A stretch of DNA of 64,000 bases from Antedon bifida (Eukaryota; Echinodermata; Crinoidea; Comatulida; Antedonidae), in assembly GCA_963402885.1 (NCBI GenBank), contig OY727099.1, positions 19,921,001 through 19,985,000 on the forward strand, read 5' to 3'. How positions within the stretch are numbered: the stretch's first letter is position 1; each line of letters starts with the position of its first letter. Below the pieces are notes generated by a model. It was not told where the DNA came from. It saw only the letters and a program-made list of their open reading frames with translations, and searched no databases. A program made the position numbers and the translations under genes. Below, in pieces: positions 8,701-58,298 of the stretch.

Positions 8701-11700
8701 ATGTCCCAAATTCGTTTAATTCAGGGGCGGATGCATGTGGCCCAGCTGGCCCAGGACACCCCGCAAATTGTAATGCAAAAGATATGACATCAAATTAATC
8801 TCAGCCCTACATTTCACCATTTTTAAGCCCTGGGGCTCCCTCCTCCTATTTCAAAAACCTGGATCTACCACTGTAATTTTGTTCAAAACAATAAAATAAT
8901 AGAAATACAATGGGTGGATTAAGAGGTGGTGCCCAGCTGGCTCCAGCCCCTCCTTTGAAAAATGTAAGGGTTTGTAAGAAAATATGTTATGGCTGTCCCC
9001 AAGTTTTTCAAAATGTTCCCCTTCAATCTTCCATATACATGATGTTTATATTAATCCAAAGGCAAATTACTGAAAAAATGACAATGCTGTGGGTATCAGT
9101 GGCTGGATCTCAATGGAGATACAAAAAAAAAAAAAGCGAAAGGCTAAATCAAAACGATAAAGTAAACAGCCAGAAAAGTTAGCAGAGCTTTTGGGCAACA
9201 CTAGCCCTTCATCAGTGCAAGTGTTATGTTTATATTATATATATATTTTTTCATTATTGGTCTGTTTATATTTCTTTCTTGTTAATCTTATCATTTTTGT
9301 TTTTTAAGTTATGAGGCCCGCATGCACGTTAGCCTCGGCTGTTTTAATGTCAATAAACAAAGTTTAACAAAGAAAAAAAAATCAGCCTTTTCCTCAGATC
9401 CTGTATGCACACTTGATCTGAATTCAAAACTATACTTACTCCAATTAAATTAGACCTGAGAGGCACCGCCATTTCAGCTTGCATAGCAGAAGTTGCTTGA
9501 ACAACATCGTCCGTAGTCTCATAACTAACATTAGTAAGTGGCATAGGTCCATGATAATACCTCTCCGTCCTTTCAAGACGTAATGATACAGGGCGCGCTG
9601 ATTCTTGCGTAGATAAGTCCTCGTAGGTTGTGGAAGCTTTTAATCGGATGCGTTTAACAGCCGACTGATCTGTAGTGGAATTATTTTTGGAATGATTTGG
9701 TTCATTGCTATTGTCTTTTGATTTTTCTTTGTTGGTTTGTTTTGCTAAAATGGACGTTTCAGATCTGTAGGAACAAAAAAAAAACAGAATAGAAAAACAT
9801 ATATATAAATATACCATAGACAAAAATTACATAAATGTATCTTCAGGTCATCAGAGTGCCTAAAATCAAAGGATCCTAATGAAATACCCCAAAAAAACTG
9901 CAGTAAAAATGGTTAATACATTTTACAAAATTATTATAGTATTAATAGAATAATAATAATCTAGGCTTATATAGCACATTATGCAAAGCAGTAATGCGCT
10001 TAACAGTAAAACTAGAAATAGCAAAGTGCAAATGAGTGCTGAGAATAGATCTATAGCACAACAAACATCTATATTAGAACGCTTCTCATTGGACAACAAA
10101 AGGCCTCCCATGGACTATACAGTGTACAATCGTAGCCTGCAATAATTGATTTCACCCTCAGATAGCAAAAGCTGTAAACTTGGCCTAGGTTGTCTTAGGC
10201 CAACTTTTTGTAGACAAACCATGACCTTTCGGATCTGACAAGCAATGAAGTGTGACAGGAGCTCAAATAGCTGCTACACAAATGCCAGAAAATTCTGAGC
10301 CAAAAAATCGAGTTTTGAAAAGAATTCTGTTCTTTTCTACTATATAGAAATAAAACATTAGCAAAATAGAGATAGGTAGCTTACTCTGTGACGCTTAGTA
10401 CCCTAGTGCTGTGGTGGTTGAACCTTTTGATGAGGGCGGCATCTACAGATGTGCTTGTTGAGGGTTGCTTATCAACTGAACTTCCATAGCCCTGGAACAA
10501 TAATAAAGTATTGTGATCACTGAATTGACTTGAGAGAGTCATATGGCTGTTAAGGCAGGTGGGCCGCTTACCGTACAAAGAAGTCATCAATATCGGCATG
10601 GGTTCGAGACCGACTCGCTTCTAATTCTGGTGGTGGAACAAGTCTTCTTGGATAAGGACTTTAAAAGTAGGTCAAGTTTACAGTTTACTTGTATACACTT
10701 AAAAGAACTCAATTCATCATTCGAAATGTGTAGAGGGTTACTCCGGTGAACGGAATTCACAAAATAACCCCTGTATCAGAGAGATTACCACTTATCTGAT
10801 TAATTTACTATTGGTAATCCTTGGCCACATAAAAGACATAAAATAAAATATGAAAAAAAAAAATTAAAATAATAAAATTTTTCACTTACAGGTACGTGTG
10901 TTATATCTTCCATTCTATCAATATTCAATAACGGGTCATTTATCTGATGCTCTATGTCATGTTGCATCTCTAAAAAAAATGTGTTAAAAATTGTGTTTTA
11001 ATTTTTCTTTAAATCCTTTTTTAGAAGAACCCAGGTGGTAGTTGCTAGCTAGCCTGTAATTTGATTGTCACAAAGCAAATGTTATTTATATAAGAGGGCT
11101 GGCATTAATTTGTCCAGCTGGAAGGGTTACCCTCTATAAATAGAGTTGAAATAAAATAAATAAAACAAACCTCTTTCATCACTCTTAGCACACTCAGCAA
11201 ACAAATCTTTGCTTCCTGTGTTAATCCGATCGCGGTGGAAATAATGTGATTGAAAGAACCGCTTCCAGAACTCAACTTCACTGATCTCACCTGGCACCTT
11301 CTCCATGTGTGTCTTTTTGACTATCAAAAAAAAAATCACAAAATTATCTACAAGAAAAAAACTAGTAATATCATTTGATTTATATTAAAATACAACGATA
11401 TTTAATAAAGTAGGACCATTATTTATGGGACAACTTTGGGATCCAACAAAGTGGCTGTAGTGTTGACACATATAGGGGTGTCCCCTGAATAGAGGCATTT
11501 GCTGTAGTGTTAGAACATGTGTAGTGTTGACACATATAGGGGTGTCCCCTGAATAGAGGCATTTGCTGTAGTGTTAGAACAGGAGTAGTGTGGACACATA
11601 TAGGGGTGTCCCCTGAATAGACGCATTGCCGTAGTGTTAGAACATGTGTAGTGTGGACACATATAGGGGTGTTCCCTGAATAGACGCATTTGCTGTAGTG

Positions 11701-14700
11701 TTAGAACATGTGTAGTGTGGACACATATAGGGGTGTCCCCTGAATAGAGGCATTTGCTGTAGTGTTAGAACAGGTGTAGTGTGGACACATATAGGGGTGT
11801 CCCCTGAATAGAGGCATTTGCTGTAGTGTTAGAACAGGAGTAGTGTTGACACATATAGGGGTGTCCCCTGAATAGACGCATTTGCTGTAGTGTTAGAACA
11901 TGTGTAGTGTGGACACATATAGGGGTGTCCCCTGAATAGAGGCATTGCCGTAGTGTTAGAACAGGAGTAGTGTTGACACATATAGGGGTGTCCCCTGAAT
12001 AGACACATTTGCCGTAGTGTTAGAACATGTGTAGTGTGGACACATATAGGGGTGTCCCCTGAATAGAGGCATTGCCGTAGTGTTAGAACATGTGTAGTGT
12101 GGACACATATAGGGGTGTCCCCTGAATAGACACATTTGCTTTAGTGTTAGAACATGTGTAGTGTGGACACATATAGGGGTGTCCCCTGAATAGACGCATT
12201 TGCTGTAGTGTTAGAACATGTGTAGAGTTGACACATATAGGGGTGTCCCCTGAATAGACGCATTTGCTGTAGTGTTAGAACATGTGTAGAGTTGACACAT
12301 ATAGGGGTGTCCCCTGAATAGACGCATTTGCTGTAGTGTTAGAACATGTGTAGAGTTGACACATATAGGGGTGTCCCCTGAATAGACGCATTTAACATAG
12401 TGTTAGAACATGTGTAGTGTGGACACATATAGGGGTGTCCCCTGAATAGACGCATTTGCTGTAGTGTTAGAACATGTGTAGAGTTGACACATATAGGGGT
12501 GTCCCCTGAATAGACGCATTTGATGTAGTGTTAGAACATGTGTAGTGTGGACACATATAGGGGTGTCCCCTGAATAGACGCATTTGCTGTAGTGTTAGAA
12601 CATGTGTAGTGTGGACACATATAGGGGTGTCCCCTGAATAGAGGCATTTGCTGTAGTGTTAGAACAGGAGTAGTGTTGACACATATAGGGGTGTCCCCTG
12701 AATAGACGCATTTGCTGTAGTGTTAGAACATGTGTAGTGTGGACACATATAGGGGTGTCCCCTGAATAGACGCATTTGCTGTAGTGTTAGAACATGTGTA
12801 GTGTGGACACATATAGGGGTGTCCCCTGAATAGACGCATTTGCTGTAGTGTTAGAACATGTGTAGAGTTGACACATATAGGGGTGTCCCCTGAATAGACG
12901 CATTTGCTGTAGTGTTAGAACATGTGTAGAGTTGACACATATAGGGGTGTCCCCTGAATAGACGCATTTGCTGTAGTGTTAGAACATGTGTAGAGTTGAC
13001 ACATATAGGGGTGTCCCCTGAATAGACGCATTTAACATAGTGTTAGAACATGTGTAGTGTGGACACATATAGGGGTGTCCCCTGAATAGACGCATTTGCT
13101 GTAGTGTTAGAACATGTGTAGAGTTGACACATATAGGGGTGTCCCCTGAATAGACGCATTTGCTGTAGTGTTAGAACATGTGTAGTGTGGACACATATAG
13201 GGGTGTCCCCTGAATAGACGCATTTGCTGTAGTGTTAGAACATGTGTAGTGTGGACACATATAGGGGTGTCCCCTAAATAGAGGCATTTGCTGTAGTGTT
13301 AGAACAGGAGTAGTGTTGACACATATAGGGGTGTCCCCTGAATAGACGCATTTGCTGTAGTGTTAGAACATGTGTAGTGTGGACACATATAGGGGTGTCC
13401 CCTGAATAGACGCATTTGCTGTAGTGTTAGAACATGTGTAGTGTGGACACATATAGGGGTGTCCCCTGAATAGAGTCATTTGACATGGTGTTAGAACATG
13501 TGTAGTGTGGACACATATAGGTGTGTCCCCTGAATAGAGTAATTTGACATAGTGTTATAGAACATGTGTAGAGTTGACACATATAGGGGTGTCCCCTGAA
13601 TAGAGGCATTGCTGTAGTGTTAGAACAGGAGTAGTTTTGACACATATAGGGGTGTCCCCTGAATAGAGGCATTTGCCGTAGTGTTAGAACAGGTGTAGTA
13701 TTGACACATATAGGGGTGTCTCCTGAATAGAGGCATTTTCTGTAGTGTTAGAACAGGTATAGTGTTGACACATATAGGGGCGTGTTAGAGGTGTTTGTCA
13801 TAGTGTTAAAACATATATTTCCCCTTGTTCATCTTAAATGAAAGTATCCACTGGGTGTCCCAAAAGAGGGGTTCTACTGTACCCATTTTTTATAACTAAT
13901 TCTATGGAATCTCACCAGCTGGGTATGTTTTGAATATAGCCTGAATGTCATCAACTGTCAGATTATATTTCACCCCATTGCATCCATCTGCCTGTGGTTT
14001 GATGTCAGCTAAGAACGCTGCTGATACACCAACTTGTTGGTTATTTTTCATTCCTTCAACTTGCTACAAGAAAAAACCAATTTCAACTGTTCTTATATAT
14101 AATACCTTATTTATTTTATTATTAGTATTTTATTATTAGTATTTCTTTATACTGGGTAGCCTCTGAGGGCCCAGTTATGATCAGTGGCTGTGTGCGTACT
14201 AGTAACCCCCTACTTGCCTCGAAAGTTGTACACTGGACCTACGGTTTAAAGTCCTTATCCGAAAAGATAAGATCTGTTATAACAGATATGCGCTTTTAAA
14301 CTTTTTTTGGGTGTATGGTCGACATGACTATTGATTGAACAGAGCTGGACAACAACTTGGACAAATTATGTAATGCATAATTTATGCCGTAGATCATAGG
14401 TCACTTTAAATAGAAAGCTCCATATCAATGTAAATGAACCTACTTCTTTTCTTGATGACCAAAACTCTTCAGCAGTTATCACGCCACTTACTACTAAATC
14501 TTTGTATAGATTATATAGTTTAGGATCTTCTTTTAGCATTCTATAAAATAAGTGATTTATTTTTTTTAATTAAGTAATTTTATTGCAATCATATTACAAT
14601 GACAATGTTTTGTTTACCTTAAATAATGTGCACAAATAACAACAAAAAGAGAATAAATAAAATATACCTTTTTTCTTAAATTTCTGAAAAGAATTTTTTA

Positions 14701-16996: not shown

Positions 16997-19169
16997 ATGG
17001 CTTCAACAACTCTTCCATCTCTCGAGGGTAAGTTATATAACGTAATTGTGTATGAGGCTGGTTTTGTTGTTTCAATTAATTAAGTACAACTACAAGAATA
17101 AGCTAGTCTAGGCCTAGGTCTTCTCGAATCTAGTACTACTAGGCCTAGTAGCCTGTCGGCATAGATATGCCTACAACACTAAATTATTGTATAGTTTTAG
17201 TAGTCCACTTAATATTCCTACTGGGATGTTTTGAAAAAAAATTTTTTATTGTATATAATTATTTTTATCTTAAAATATTTTACAATGAACACAAACTATC
17301 TAATATTTGTCATATAATAAAAATGTATTTTTCTTTTAATCAACAGCTCTTCTTGGAAGAGAAAAGAAAAGCAATGTATCATTTGGAACTACTCAACAAA
17401 GACCACTGTTCCCTGGAAATTTACCACCGAACCGTATGGGGGCTGAATTAGGGTTAGAAGAAGCACCACATCGGGCGCCAGGGACTTATGACAATGCAGA
17501 GGTAATAACAGTCATGCGTTTTTTAACATATTATGCGCATATAATTGAATACATTATATTAGATGTATCATCTTGTTCCTCAGTTTTTCTACCCTCCTCT
17601 TGTAATTTTATTCATTTTTTATAAATGCATTTATTTATATTTTTGGAGATAAATAAAAATACTGTATTATAATATAAATTATATTTATGTTGATAAATAC
17701 ATTTTTACATTATTCTTAATTAAATTTAGGGAAGATTCAAGATGATGGACACATATAAATAAATACATTGTAGAAAAAAAAATACTGAAAATTGGTAACA
17801 TGTTATTTTATTCTCCACAGAAAACTACGTTCCTGTATGAAATTGATAAACAAGTAACAAGTAAACAAGGGTATTCAATGGGTGCAAGAACAAATCCAAG
17901 GTTTAACAAAGAATTTCAGGTAAGAAATTAATTAAACATGTAAATAATTTACTATTTGTATAATAAAATATTAATAGTATTAATATGTATATCACTATCA
18001 GGAGTTTATGAAATTGGCAACAAAATAGTGGGTGGGATTATTATTCGAATTGCAATTGACTTATGTCTTTACTAGTCTAAATAAGTGGATGGGTTTATAT
18101 TAAAACATAGGATTATTGCTTACACTATATGCCACCTAAAGAAAAAAAATACTAATGTTTTATATTTTATTTATCTGTGTTTCTTTTAAAGTTGTTTTTA
18201 ATGTGTTATATTTAAAAAAAAATGATTTTAAATGTTTTAGACTGTCACACCTTGTCCAACAACTTATCAGAAGTCGACCACCTTGCCAAGGACGTTCAAA
18301 CCAGCTTTCAAATCATTCCATGTTGGTGGTGACAGATTTTTTCGCAAGCAAATAGACCCAGAGTTAACACCTGGGTAAGATATATATACTGTACTTACTG
18401 CTATACTTGTTTAAAACTCTGTCTACTCTATCAAACCAGTTTGATAAAAAAAAAAGGGTGATGTGCCCAAATATGATAGTGATTATATGCCCAAATATGG
18501 TAGTGATATCACATCATCAAGGCAAATTAGATTTTCTTGTCATAGTGTAAACAGGGCTTAAAATACTGTTTTGATGCTATACATAAAAGAAACAATAAAC
18601 GTCCTTGACAAAATAGGGTGATGTGCCCAAATATGGTAGTGATTATATGCCCAAATATGGTAGTGATATTACATCATGTCCATATATAGGCAAATCACAT
18701 TTTTTTTTCATAGTGTAGACAGAGCTTAAAATACTCTTTTGATGCTATACATAAAAGAAACAATAAATGTCCTTGACATTAGGGGGCAAGAAATGTAACC
18801 CTATCGACGTTCAAAATACGATTGGATAAGCATTGACATGATAAGGTGTTTAAAAAGGCTCAGCCTAGAAACCACTGTTTAAACTGTGAGTGTAAGAGAA
18901 CTTCAGTCCTAATCATTAAGTGCTAAGGTTTACATTATAAATTTATTTGTTTTTTCAGAGCTGGAACGTACGAACATGATGTTCCAAAAAACAGAAAAGT
19001 AGCTTATCACGGGACATTTGGCGGACCTCAACATCTCAAAATTCAACCAGATGACTCGATATTACTGCCAGAGCACTGTAAAGGAACTACAACAAAGAGT
19101 CGTTTAATGTCGTATAAAGATAAACGAAAATTCGCCATACGTGAAGCATATTTAAGTCTATACTATTAA
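16997..19169 (+). CDS. PIFO: pitchfork, ciliary microtubule-associated protein 3
   Basis: Pitchfork acts at the basal body and cilium, where it is linked to Aurora A activation during cilium disassembly. Exons: 16997-17027, 17347-17501, 17821-17919, 18241-18374, 18959-19169. All have GT/AG ends and sum to 630 bp (209 aa; human is about 191). Diagnostic matches to the vertebrate protein are FGTTQQRPLFPGNLPPNRMG (human FGTCQQRKLFPHFHPPNLIG), APHRAPGTYDNAE, KQGYSMGARTNPRF, and the C terminus REAYLSLYY (human RVAYLSLYYN). Several P-G-x-Y steps recall the inner-surface microtubule proteins of axonemes. The start was chosen because it is in phase with exon 2 and follows an X-box. Exon 4 is followed by a tandemly duplicated MITE in the last intron. 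Confidence 0.93.
18414..18778. mobile_element. tandemly duplicated MITE piece plus flank, PIFO intron 4
   Basis: A full but eroded copy of the AGCTCTGTCTACACTATC family (18414-18560) is followed by a second copy of its right two thirds. The duplicated unit of about 166 bp (18447-18612 and 18613-18778) also carries non-MITE flank (GATGCTATACATAAAAGAAA in both). The event therefore followed insertion and involved host flank. Confidence 0.7.
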
Positions 19170-53397: not shown

Positions 53398-56300
53398 ATG
53401 GATGAAAATAGTGTATCTTGTACAGATGTGTCAATCAACCCTTTTGAAGCTGAGAGCACTGATAGCCTTCACTTGTCCAAGTTTAGTCCATCTATTTTTA
53501 AAATAAAAACACCGTCATCTACAAAGGTAATGAACTTCAAATTGAATAAGAAAGAATGTTTGAGAAAACAATTTAATCGAAAGTTTAAAAACTTACTAAA
53601 AGTAAAATTCAAACTGATTTTCCTACTGTATAAAGTCTGTGTTTCCGCAGCCAAAGATTAACTGATAATTAACCCATAATAATTAACCAATAAACTGCCT
53701 GTGAAAACAGGGTTTAACCGATTCCGATCGAGACAAATTATCCGATAATTATCTGATTCAATCGGATATTTATCAGATAAATGCGTTGATTTTTAAAGAT
53801 GTATTGTCCCTTTGACTAATTCCAAAAAAATAAAAAATAACAGATTTCGAAAAAAGGTGGGTCATTTTGAAGTATCTTAATAGTTATTAACTATCACCAA
53901 GAATTTTTCGAAAAAAAAAATCATTTAACTGAAATACAGACGTTTTTTTGTTAAAAAAATAACTTTGACTTCCAGTCAAAGTTTTCGATCAAAACATATC
54001 CCATAATGAAACGCGCTTGTTTGGCTACTCTGTATGCATAATCATAAAACTTCCTCACGATCTGTGTGAAAATACCTTCTCAACCGTGACGAGTTGTAAA
54101 CAATCCTAATTAGCATATGCATAATGCGTACTTGTGGTTTGAAATCTTTGTTTACTTTTGTTGGCGACGATTTTCCAGATGAAATGTAATCAAACTAATT
54201 TACCTGTTAATTACGTAAACTTGTTGCTTTTGGCTGGAATTTTCGACTTAAAGTGAATAACTTTAATATTACTTTGATATTGCCAATTTAAATTTAGAAT
54301 ACTTTGACCTTCATTTTTTTGTGTTTCAAGGGACAATACATCTTTAACCTTTGACCTGAAGGACAAATTGTTGTTTTTTGATTGGGCACTTGGTTGTTTG
54401 GTAATGATTATGATTATTTTAAAATTAATTACCTGATGGGTTAAAACATTAACCGATAATTTTTGTTTTTGCTGCAGCCTTAGTCACACATAAATTAATT
54501 AATGAGATTGAGAGGTTTGAAATGTCTGATGTTTGATTTTAATTAACAAAATAATTTCATACAAAACATAACAATAAAGAAAAGAAGAGTTCAAAATCCA
54601 AATGACTGGTTAACCAAAAAGCAAAGTAAATCACTGTCAATCAAGTGGCTCACCAAATGAAAATGAAAAGAGATATACAATATAATTAAGCTAACAGTAC
54701 AATAAAATTATTAATAAATAATTTTAAATTGCTGATTTGTTTATGGATTGTAATTCTAAAATCATGGTGAAATTTCTTAAAATATATATATATATAAATA
54801 ACCTGAATTTTCTATTAAAGAAATCACCCAAGTTTCGGTGGTCAATCGATCAACTGGCTATTTTGAAACCAGCTGACATAGATGAAACCCCACAGCAGGA
54901 CACACACCTAGATCAAGACACTGAGCAACGTCTTCAGCAGGCTATTGACCAGGTATATTACACCATCATGCTTTATAACTTGATTGAGTGGTACCACGCC
55001 CTGCTTTCTTATTGTATAAAGGTCTTTTTCTTTAGTGACTCTTGCCCAAGCATAACTACTGTATATCCAATAGACAAAAGCAAAGCAAAGGATTTACGCC
55101 AACTGTATTGGCTAAATTCACTTTAGGATCTACAGGAAACTAGCATGAATAATTTAGGTCCTTTACAAGGAATCCATTTAATTTTTGAATCGGACAATCA
55201 CATACTGTACATAAGTATATATTTTTTGAAATTGAGAGGAACAATATGATTTTAAAAACAAAACAGAGGGCTTCCACCTTAAAAACATAATACTGTTCTA
55301 TGTTTAACAATAAAGTGTATTGTCTTAGTTTTTCAGTCAGAAACAAGTAGCTCCTTCGCCTTGGTCTTCTGGCAAACTTGTAAAACATGTTACGTTTTCA
55401 CCACATCCACCAAGTACAAACTGTAAGTATACAACTCAAAATATTTAAAGACATTACCCTAGATTGTACTTATACAATGTCTGTTAAATTGTGAAGAGGT
55501 ATAAAATAGATACCTCCATTGTTAAATAAGCTAACATACTGTTATACATTACAATAGTCTGCATTGATTTTATTTTTAGATTATGATGTTAAATCAGCTG
55601 ACAACTCTGGAGCTTCGTCATGTGACACATCCTTTACCAATAACAAACCAAATATGGTTGATGGTATGTTTATCACAATTTAGTGTTATTAATTCATTTT
55701 TCCTGTTTACTGTTTACTAATAATTCTAATGCAACTAAACTTTTTGACCATACATTAAGCTCTGTCTACACTATCAAACTTTATGTGACAAAAAAAAATG
55801 TGATATGCCCAAGTATGGACATGATGATGTCATATCCCTACCATACGTGGGCATATCATTACCATATTTGGGTACATCACACCTTTTTTCACCACATCCA
55901 CCAAGTACAAACTGTAAGTATACAACTCAAAATATTTAAATATCCCTACCATACGTGGGCATATCATTACCATATTTGGGTACATCACACCTTTTTTGTA
56001 AAACATGTTACGTTTTCACCACATCCACCAAGTACAAACTGTAAGTATACAACTCAAAATATTTAAAGACATTACCCTAGATTGTACTTATACAATGTCT
56101 GTTAAATTGTGACTTTTTTGTCAAACTAGTTTGATAGTGTAGACTTTTTCACACCCTTTTTTAGTTGCATTACTGTTTTGAATGTTTAACATGTAACAAT
56201 TTATTCTAGATCTAACACATTTTACAACTTAATTACAGTTCTGAATTAAATTTAACAATGTTATATAATTGTATTTTTAATGCTTTTTTTAAAAAATTTT

Positions 56301-58298
56301 GTCAATAGCATCTTCTCAAACTTGCTTAACACTGCCGTTGGATTTTGATCTACATGCGTTGCTTTGTAAGTAAATATTAACAATTTACAAGTTATTGTTT
56401 TACTGACACTGAATATATATTTCACACTGGAGTATAAAACCAGTGCGCCTTTGCACAAGTAAGACCAAATTGTCTAAAAATTGGTAGATACTGTAGGTCT
56501 AACAAACCTCACAAGTCTCCATATTACAAGTGATCCAGTCTCCCGCTGGTGCAATTTCTCCTAGTCGTTTAGGATATGAAAAAAAAAACAAAATGCGATA
56601 GTCCATAAATTTACCATAACCTACTACTAGGCCCATTTTGGTTGATTAAAGATGTATTGTCCCTTGAAACACAAAAAAATGAAGGTCAAAATATTCTAAA
56701 TTTAAATTGGCCACATCAAAGTAATATTAAAGTTATTCACTTTAAGTTGAAAATTTGAGCCAAAAACAACAAGTTTACGTAATTAACAGGTAAATTAATT
56801 TGATTACATTTCGTCTGGCTAATTAGGATTGTTTACAACTCGTCGCGATTGAGAAGGTGTTTTCACACAGATCGCGAGAAAGTTTTATGATTATGCATAC
56901 AGTGTAGCCAAACAAGCGCGTTGCATTATGAGATATGATTTGATTGAAAAAATTTCTGTATTTCAGTTAAATGATTTTTTTTTTGACTAATTTTTGGTGA
57001 AAAGTTAATAACTGTTATGATACTTTTAAAGGACCCACTTTTTTTCGAAATAAAAAAAATTTTTTTGGAATTAGTCAACTTTTTTGGCAATTCATTTGCC
57101 ACCTTTACGTATATAACAAACATACATAGCGTATTTAAAAAATGTCCATTGTTTTCCTAAGCTGATGCCTAAGGTTTTGTTAATAGTAGCACCCTCTATT
57201 TTTGGATGTATATTTAGCAAAACCTATAATGCCCTGAAATTTTATTTTGCTTTTAGATCAGCAGCACATATTTGTAAAAGAGAGTGCATTTAAATTTATT
57301 ATATTAAAACAATAAATTAAACTTAATATTAAAAATTACGAAATGAATGGTAATTAATTATTTGACTACATCGTTTTTTTTTCCATTTTGGTATACCTCC
57401 AATGCTAATTAAACTGATATTTCTCCTGAAGATGGTCGGATAGCATAACAACCAAATTGCCAATAAATTCTCAACCATACCTACCATTATTAGTTATTCA
57501 GACTAAATATGCATTTTAGTTGTCTGAAAGGTTCAAAATTCTTTCATCAGGCATTTTAGAAAACCAGAAATGTTTGGTGTTTTGTTTATGCCCCACGTCT
57601 CTTGTGAATGACAATGTCAATTAGTTTTACATTCATCTGAATAACGGATGAAACTAAGCCAGGACTGTTTAAAGCACCTTGATTGGTCCTAACATTGATC
57701 ATTGATCTCACCTTGACTAGAGGAAAGGCATGGGCCAATACATCTGAGGCAGATACTACGCCATCACACTCACAGGTCCTCATGTATTATTGTTGCTAGA
57801 GTGCGCCACCTTGCGCCATATCGAGAGACATTGTTTTCACTTAGTGTTAGTTGGTTCGTGTTATACTATAGACCTAGTGTCGGTTGATATTATATTTGTT
57901 TATATATTAAAGTGTTCATATCTACATTAAGTTGATGAGTCTTTATTGCCGCTAGAGGAAGAGGCTAAAATAACATGTTTGCTTTTTTTTTATTAGGTTA
58001 TATGCTTTATCATGCAGTATAACCATATTGTTTAATATTGTTCTCAGCATCCTTCTACAGTTACCAACAAGGCAGCATGAATGAGATTTTATCAACGTCA
58101 TCCCTCCGTCGTAAATTGTTTTTACCAGCGGGTTCAACAACTTCTGAATCTAGTCCTAGTATGAACTATATCCAGTCCAGCCAATGTGAAAGTGGCGTGT
58201 TTCCTGAAAAATTGTTATCGCTTTCGCCAATCAATTCAATTAAACAGAGAGCTACAGCTCCCGGTCGAGATACACCAAACACACCTGCTTCAGCTAAG
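53398..58298 (+). CDS. BORA: protein aurora borealis (BORA), 3' part not found
   Basis: Bora is the cofactor that lets Aurora A phosphorylate the PLK1 activation loop at mitotic entry. Exons are 53398-53526, 54821-54952, 55329-55422, 55580-55663, 56309-56365 and 58048-58298, all in phase (249 codons). Matches to human are VSINPFEAES (NPFESPSD), FSPSIFK (SPSVFK), KFRWSIDQLAILKPADID (KFRWSIDQLAVINPVEID), AIDQFFSQ...VAPSPW (AIEEFFTKDVIVPSPW), QTCLTLPLDFDLHALL (QTLLSLPVDFNLENIL) and STSSLRRKLFLPAG (SSSSLRRKLFLDG). RRKLFL is also a cyclin-docking RxL motif. The last exon seen ends at a donor (GTAAGA at 58299) after TPNTPASAK. Human BORA is 559 aa, so about half is still missing, either beyond 64000 or unrecognised. 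An acceptor at 53366 implies an upstream non-coding exon. Confidence 0.92.
53796..54350 (-). mobile_element. MITE, TTAAAGATGTATTGTCCC family, long form, BORA intron
   Basis: Starts TTAAAGATGTATTGTCCCTT and ends AAGGGACAATACATCTTTAA, perfect inverted ends about 550 bp apart. An inverted copy lies at 56646-57080. It lies in the BORA intron between the first two coding exons found. Confidence 0.8.
55755..56144. mobile_element. MITE carrying two copies of BORA exon 3 sequence
   Basis: The ends are those of the AGCTCTGTCTACACTATC family (start TTAAGCTCTGTCTACACTATC, end TTGATAGTGTAGAC). Inside, 55889-55941 repeats the end of the BORA exon, its GTAAGT donor and about 20 bp of intron. 55994-56112 repeats about 119 bp (the exon end from GTAAAACATG on, the donor and about 75 bp of intron) essentially without change. 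The MITE piece CATATCATTACCATATTTGGG is itself doubled. It lies in the BORA intron after exon 4. Confidence 0.85.
56646..57080 (+). mobile_element. MITE, TTAAAGATGTATTGTCCC family, inverted to 53796 copy
   Basis: Starts AAAGATGTATTGTCCCTTG and carries, in order, the reverse complement of the 53796-54350 body (AATTAACAGGTAAATTAATT, TTTGATTACATTTCG). The right end stops near GGAATTAGTCAAC without its terminal repeat. It lies in the BORA intron before the last exon found. Confidence 0.75.

What the first reader, a model, noticed from the sequence alone, without database searches (positions are those of the whole stretch)
55755..56144. A MITE that holds two copies of the neighbouring BORA exon end and splice donor
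The element keeps its family's two ends, yet contains about 119 bp identical to BORA 55377-55495 (exon end, GTAAGT donor, intron) plus a shorter 53-bp copy. This is a local gene-fragment capture, as in Pack-MITEs, some 0.5 kb from the source. It places two extra working-looking donors in the same gene and could cause odd splicing. The near-identity suggests it is recent.
Basis: seen in the sequence. Interest (0 to 1): 0.75.

Follow-up and report, generated by a model that had tools for sequence, protein, structure and literature searches.

The report
Mobile-element remnant filled with neighbouring gene
A short, dead mobile element inside an intron of a cell-division gene appears to have been patched, after it landed, with two copies of DNA from about half a kilobase away that include the end of an exon; it is a neat example of a known kind of repair accident rather than a new system.

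Summary
A Tc1/mariner-like MITE (55755-56144) in a BORA intron holds two copies, both 100% identical, of DNA from 55378-55494: 117 bp (55996-56112) and 55 bp (55886-55940, counting shared junction bases). Each carries the ACT|GTAAGT donor. "Keeps its two ends" fails: the right end stops at GTAGAC, while 29 of 29 aligned relatives continue (consensus AGAGCTTTA).

The source region matches nothing in its own genome except itself and these two copies. The duplicated MITE segment carries two variants seen in 0 of 29 relatives, so copying followed insertion. Junction overlaps are 4, 1, 4 and 0 bp; three of four lie in one T-run of a strong hairpin. Best reading: in-situ, microhomology-guided template switching or gap filling, as published for single-copy Pack-TIRs (PMC8277862), not capture followed by transposition. 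One or several steps cannot be told apart. A second dispersed case (L071) and tandem duplications (L069, L087, window 18.4-18.8 kb) suggest that the process recurs. A splicing effect is untested; use of the copied donors would read into a stop. Modest interest; a known kind.

The parts
55336..55422 (+). BORA exon whose 3' end was copied (frame reads QKQVAPSPWSSGKLVKHVTFSPHPPSTN)
   Evidence: Open frame between TTTTTCAG and GTAAGT, continuing into exon 55580-55663; BORA_N hit just upstream
55378..55494 (+). Source of both copies: last 45 nt of the exon, donor GTAAGT at 55423, first 72 nt of the intron
55580..55663 (+). Next BORA exon, just upstream of the intron that holds the element
   Evidence: Frame and splice signals
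55755..55889 (+). MITE, left end to T-run (left terminus TTA|AGCTCTGTCTAC intact)
   Evidence: Alignment with 29 relatives
55886..55940 (+). BORA copy 1 (55 bp, = 55395-55449), with donor GT at 55914; entered through 4 bp TTTT, left through 1 bp A
55940..55997 (+). Second copy of MITE segment 55832-55889 (58 bp, 100%), with the element's private variants
55996..56112 (+). BORA copy 2 (117 bp, = 55378-55494), with donor GT at 56041; entered through 4 bp TTGT, left with 0 bp overlap
56113..56144 (+). MITE right part from the T-run (CTTTTTTGTCAAACTAG...GTAGAC); outer terminus (consensus AGAGCTTTA) missing

Best explanation
An old, immobile Tc1/mariner-like MITE in a BORA intron was the site of a DNA synthesis accident. 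A break or stall at or near the T-run in one arm of its hairpin released the growing strand. The strand re-paired through a few matching bases (TTTT, TTGT) with DNA about 0.5-0.6 kb upstream, at the end of a BORA exon, copied it, and returned to the MITE, apparently twice: MITE - 55 bp BORA - 58 bp MITE again - 117 bp BORA - rest of MITE. Shown: identities, order, junction overlaps, hairpin potential, uniqueness of the insert, and that copying came after the element's private variants. Inferred: that synthesis-dependent gap filling or fork template switching did it, and that it was one multi-step event.
For: Only here: the source query finds itself and the two copies and nothing else. Copying is younger than the insertion: the 58-bp MITE repeat shares two variants present in 0 of 29 relatives and one in 2 of 29, and the MITE differs from the relatives' consensus at 8 of 150 sites while the captured copies have no mismatch. 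Junction overlaps 4, 1, 4, 0 bp: a summed overlap of 9 or more came up in 1.7% of random breakpoint sets (mean 3.1), two or more junctions of at least 4 bp in 0.4%. Three of four MITE breakpoints lie in the T-run CTTTTTTGT; chance of three of four within 9 nt is 3% under uniform breakpoints, a post-hoc test. The joined MITE folds to -40.8 kcal/mol against -13.3 for shuffles, z -10.3. Same picture as published single-copy Pack-TIRs: nearby source, microhomology, internal breakpoints, single copy (PMC8277862). A second element, L071, carries a 43-nt copy of its own left flank (38 nt, one mismatch and a 5-nt extra) beside its A-run and then repeats part of its own arm.
Against: J4 has no overlap with this element's own sequence (1 bp if the template had ACTTTTTT as in several relatives). 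J2 has only 1 bp. Four junctions are also explained by separate steps. No relative species or other haplotype is on hand to show the MITE without the insert. The genome-wide sample is thin: of 33 stretches with enlarged right arms, only 4 gave any local hit, and one of these (L061) is mainly a dispersed repeat.
Confidence: 0.78

Rival explanations
1. Separate ordinary events: one 117-bp templated insertion at the T-run, later a 127-bp tandem duplication of MITE plus BORA sequence, and a 19-bp deletion between two TTTT runs in the first copy.
For: Copy spacings are 127 (BORA) and 108 (MITE), a difference of 19 (arithmetic mine); the deletion end points share TTTT. It needs the same four junctions as the one-event reading. 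Tandem duplications inside or across these MITEs occur elsewhere (L069, L074, L077, L087, window 18.4-18.8 kb).
Against: All copies are 100% identical, so all steps would have to be recent and close together.
Confidence: 0.35
2. Excision-triggered abortive gap repair: a transposase cut at the MITE and repair with nearby filler left the insert and the damaged right end.
For: The right terminus and its TA are missing; filler from nearby is expected (PMC8277862).
Against: No MITE sequence is lost inside the element and the breakpoints are internal, which PMC8277862 takes as a sign of breaks within the element rather than excision; the left end is intact. Whether the right-end loss belongs to the same event is unknown.
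Confidence: 0.12
3. A true Pack-MITE: the fragment was captured elsewhere or earlier and moved here as cargo.
For: The cargo lies between recognisable MITE arms.
Against: No second copy; right terminus missing; the duplicated MITE segment carries variants seen in no aligned relative; the source is only about 0.5-0.6 kb away in the same gene.
Confidence: 0.04
4. Assembly error in a repeat-rich stretch.
For: Short identical repeats 0.5 kb apart can mislead assemblers; no reads were available.
Against: The junctions carry short overlaps of the kind seen in real events, two differing copies are present, and the whole repeat is far shorter than a long read (inference).
Confidence: 0.05

Closest known systems
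Single-copy Pack-TIRs of animals (Tan et al. 2021, PMC8277862; abstract and sections 7, 8, 14 read)
   Same: TIR element, Tc/mariner type, holding nearby non-element DNA; single copy; source under 5 kb away; microhomology at breakpoints; internal breakpoints; capture after insertion.
   Different: Compound: two captures with a repeated piece of the element between them; right terminus missing; host element only about 158 bp long.
Microhomology-mediated break-induced replication / fork template switching (Hastings et al. 2009, PMC2621351; seen only in a search listing)
   Same: Several short templated pieces in series with 0-4 bp overlaps.
   Different: Very small scale (55-117 bp), confined to one palindromic element.
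Abortive gap repair with filler DNA in plant and fly transposons (known to me by recall and from passages in PMC8277862)
   Same: Nearby DNA used as filler in a transposon.
   Different: Here no interior of the element is lost, and a transposase cut is not shown.

Membership tests
Single-copy Pack-TIR (criteria of PMC8277862, section 14) | Both flanking TIRs reach the outer 10 bp of the consensus element | tested here: not met
   Left end met; right end stops at GTAGAC, outer part (consensus AGAGCTTTA) absent
Single-copy Pack-TIR (criteria of PMC8277862, section 14) | Internal non-element sequence over 100 bp with a unique parental copy at 90% identity or more | tested here: met
   117 bp at 100% to a single-copy source
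Single-copy Pack-TIR (criteria of PMC8277862, section 14) | Length ratio of internal sequence to parental copy 80-120% | tested here: not met
   About 223 bp (55890-56112, with the 58-bp MITE repeat) against 117 bp of parent
Single-copy Pack-TIR (criteria of PMC8277862, section 14) | Parental copy without an element in the 100 bp around it | tested here: met
   Nearest masked MITE segment in the window lists is the element itself, from 55750; only this MITE family was screened
Gap filling / template switching | Microhomology at breakpoints | tested here: met
   4, 1, 4 and 0 bp; sum of 9 or more in 1.7% of random sets
Gap filling / template switching | Same element without the insert in an outgroup | not testable with these tools
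   The genome has no relatives here
Mobile Pack-MITE / multicopy Pack-TIR | Further copies with the same cargo at other sites | tested here: not met
   Source query finds no other place
Tc1/mariner-like MITE | Short element, terminal inverted repeats, TA target site duplication | tested here: inconclusive
   Family members about 158 bp with inverted ends and flanking TA in most aligned copies by eye; the window copy has the left TA only; superfamily name is my inference from TA, no transposase was linked to it

The most novel reading that the evidence does not exclude
The A/T-run in the arms of this very common palindromic MITE is a recurrent hot spot at which synthesis leaves the element, copies nearby DNA and comes back, so that the family acts as a genome-wide source of short local duplications, now and then copying exon ends and splice donors into introns, as here in BORA.
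Probability: 0.15. Interest if true: 0.5.

Novelty: new variant of a known kind. Interest (0 to 1): 0.3.

Why it matters
It shows, base by base, how a non-coding palindromic element can acquire gene pieces without moving: the junctions, the repeated exit at one T-run, and the private variants fix the order of events. If the A/T-run proves to be a recurrent switch point over thousands of copies, this genome would offer a natural count of short template switches at hairpins in animals. For BORA itself no effect is shown.

Tried and rejected
L061 (98-nt stretch inside a MITE arm, with a CAG|GTAAGC-like motif) looked like another captured exon end; a search found it dispersed (44 matches, 40 candidates scored), so it is a nested repeat. 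Pattern search for enlarged right arms: gap 12-42, 151 matches, of which only the first part was listed; those listed looked, by eye, like the element's own 21-nt units or run slippage. Gap 101-161: 26 matches; gap 41-101: 8 matches. I analysed 33 stretches covering these 34 matches, the window included. Non-MITE runs of 12 nt or more inside: 10 of 33; with any local hit: 4 of 33 (window, L071, L087 and L061, the last only by 19- and 13-nt hits). Unexplained runs without local hit: L059, L062, L073, L076 (palindromic), L086, L093. Flanks were 1.5 kb for L058-L077 but only 0.6 kb for L084-L095, so farther parents would be missed there. Longer inserts and the left arm were not searched. A mask-and-self-compare run gave many non-MITE local repeats too, so local duplication is not special to MITEs in this genome; that run, with its score cut, did not list L071, which one search shows. 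Exonisation: no separate 3' splice-site search was run; by eye the only CAAG before each copied donor would leave an exon of 8 nt.

A survey of random 10-kb stretches was planned but not done. Literature: 'Pack-MITE' gave 0 papers; led to PMC8277862. No claim is made that this locus is absent from print.

Full report
Observation. The element at 55755-56144 was read directly. Repeat searches show 55996-56112 identical over 117 bp to 55378-55494, and a shorter copy identical over 55 bp (55886-55940 = 55395-55449, with junction bases shared). A third repeat, not in the finding, is a 58-bp MITE segment: 55832-55889 recurs without change at 55940-55997. The order is thus MITE - BORA 55 - MITE 58 - BORA 117 - MITE, all in direct orientation.

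Gene context. A BORA_N (PF15280) match lies at window 54818-54958, 41.4 bits against a cut-off of 27, the only match in the genome searched. Frames and splice signals give an exon at 55336-55422 (donor GT at 55423), the next at 55580-55663, and one starting near 56309 (limits judged by me). The copies therefore hold the last 45 nt of an exon with its donor, or part of it, and the element lies in the next intron. GTAAGT copies stand at 55914 and 56041. Reading on from exon 55580-55663 meets a stop a few codons into the intron (NMVDGMFITI*), so use of either copied donor from that exon would give a truncated product.

The MITE family. With the insert left out, the element finds many relatives of about 158 bp; 3871 candidates were seen at first look and 40 scored. 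I aligned 29 of these, those returned as loci L010-L038, which are the closest and so not a random sample. The family is palindromic: the joined element folds as DNA to -40.8 kcal/mol, shuffles -13.3 +/- 2.7, z -10.3. Ends are flanked by TA in most copies by eye, hence 'Tc1/mariner-like' (my inference). The window alone holds 15 masked segments of the family, roughly a dozen copies.

The right end. 21 of 29 relatives continue with AGAGC and 8 with a close variant (counted by eye); the window copy runs GTAGAC-TTTTTCACACCC. So one terminus is missing and the element should not be mobile. The left end is intact.

When the copying happened. In the duplicated 58-bp MITE segment the window copy has two variants seen in 0 of 29 relatives and a third in 2 of 29, and both copies carry them. 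The MITE differs from the relatives' consensus at 8 of 150 sites; the relatives differ at 2 to 8 of about 150. The BORA copies and the MITE repeat show no mismatch. Copying is therefore later than insertion and recent. Caveat: the relatives were chosen by similarity to this copy.

How it happened. Junction overlaps are 4 (TTTT), 1 (A), 4 (TTGT) and 0 bp (1 bp if the template had ACTTTTTT, as several relatives do). In 200,000 random sets of breakpoints the summed overlap reached 9 in 1.7% (mean 3.1), and two or more junctions had at least 4 bp in 0.4%. Three of four MITE breakpoints fall in the T-run CTTTTTTGT; three of four within 9 nt has a 3% chance under uniform breakpoints, a test made after seeing the data. 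Synthesis leaving the hairpin arm at the T-run, copying upstream DNA and returning, twice, accounts for the whole structure. A 117-bp insertion followed by a 127-bp tandem duplication and a 19-bp deletion between TTTT runs accounts for it with the same number of junctions; the data do not decide.

Is it mobile cargo? The source region as query finds itself and the two copies, nothing else (the tool warns that very common words are skipped). One search, with the whole element as query, likewise shows the insert only here, but scores only 40 of 3534 candidates. So there is no sign of transposed copies.

Does it recur? Pattern searches for this arm with enlarged spacing gave 151, 26 and 8 matches for gaps of 12-42, 101-161 and 41-101 nt. 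For the last two, 33 stretches (window included) were analysed: 10 have non-MITE runs of 12 nt or more, 4 have any local hit. L071 is a second dispersed case: its own left flank (38 nt) is copied as 43 nt, with one mismatch and a 5-nt extra, beside the A-run, followed by a repeat of part of the arm. L087 repeats flank with the MITE end (not studied further). L069 has a 113-bp near-perfect tandem repeat (99%) that leaves at the T-run and restarts in the left flank. In the window, 18.4-18.8 kb is a MITE-plus-flank tandem duplication (91% over the flank part) with its junction at the A-run. Against special status: one search lists many local repeats with no MITE nearby, and L061 turned out to be a dispersed repeat.

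Comparison. PMC8277862 (abstract and sections 7, 8 and 14 read) describes 370 Pack-TIRs in animals, mostly single copy, 56.9% of 281 unique ones within 15 kb of the source, microhomology in 67.6% (median 2 bp), Tc/mariner among the two main groups, breakpoints inside the element, and 91 of 97 primate cases with the empty element in outgroups. The present case works like these. It fails two of that paper's own sorting criteria (outer 10 bp at both ends; length ratio 80-120%), so I do not file it as a member; I call it a compound variant of the same kind.

Verdict. Real (subject to reads), recent, of a known kind, with a compound twist. Interest 0.3.

Noticed in passing
55727-55739 and 56160-56172: A 13-bp perfect inverted repeat (TAATGCAACTAAA / TTTAGTTGCATTA) flanks the element on both sides. 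Flank pairs with 13 bp or more: 5 of 3000 random placements in the window (after the fact). It may mark an older palindrome, or a further template switch that also removed the right terminus.
   Followed up: partly
18414-18778: MITE plus flank in tandem duplication (flank part 91%, MITE part 96%), with the junction at the A-run.
   Followed up: partly
L069:1407-1627: 113-bp, 99% tandem repeat inside a MITE that includes a few bases of left flank and is joined at the T-run.
   Followed up: partly
L064:1356-2281: Array of about 118-bp units made of MITE right end plus flank, about 95% alike: a MITE-derived minisatellite.
   Followed up: no
11307-13780: Long array of 64-bp units in the window.
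   Followed up: no
L042 (mitochondrial contig C27): COX1 has AAA where animals usually have Asn and AAG at usual Lys sites, as in the echinoderm/flatworm mitochondrial code; the host is probably an echinoderm (inference, conserved sites from recall).
   Followed up: partly
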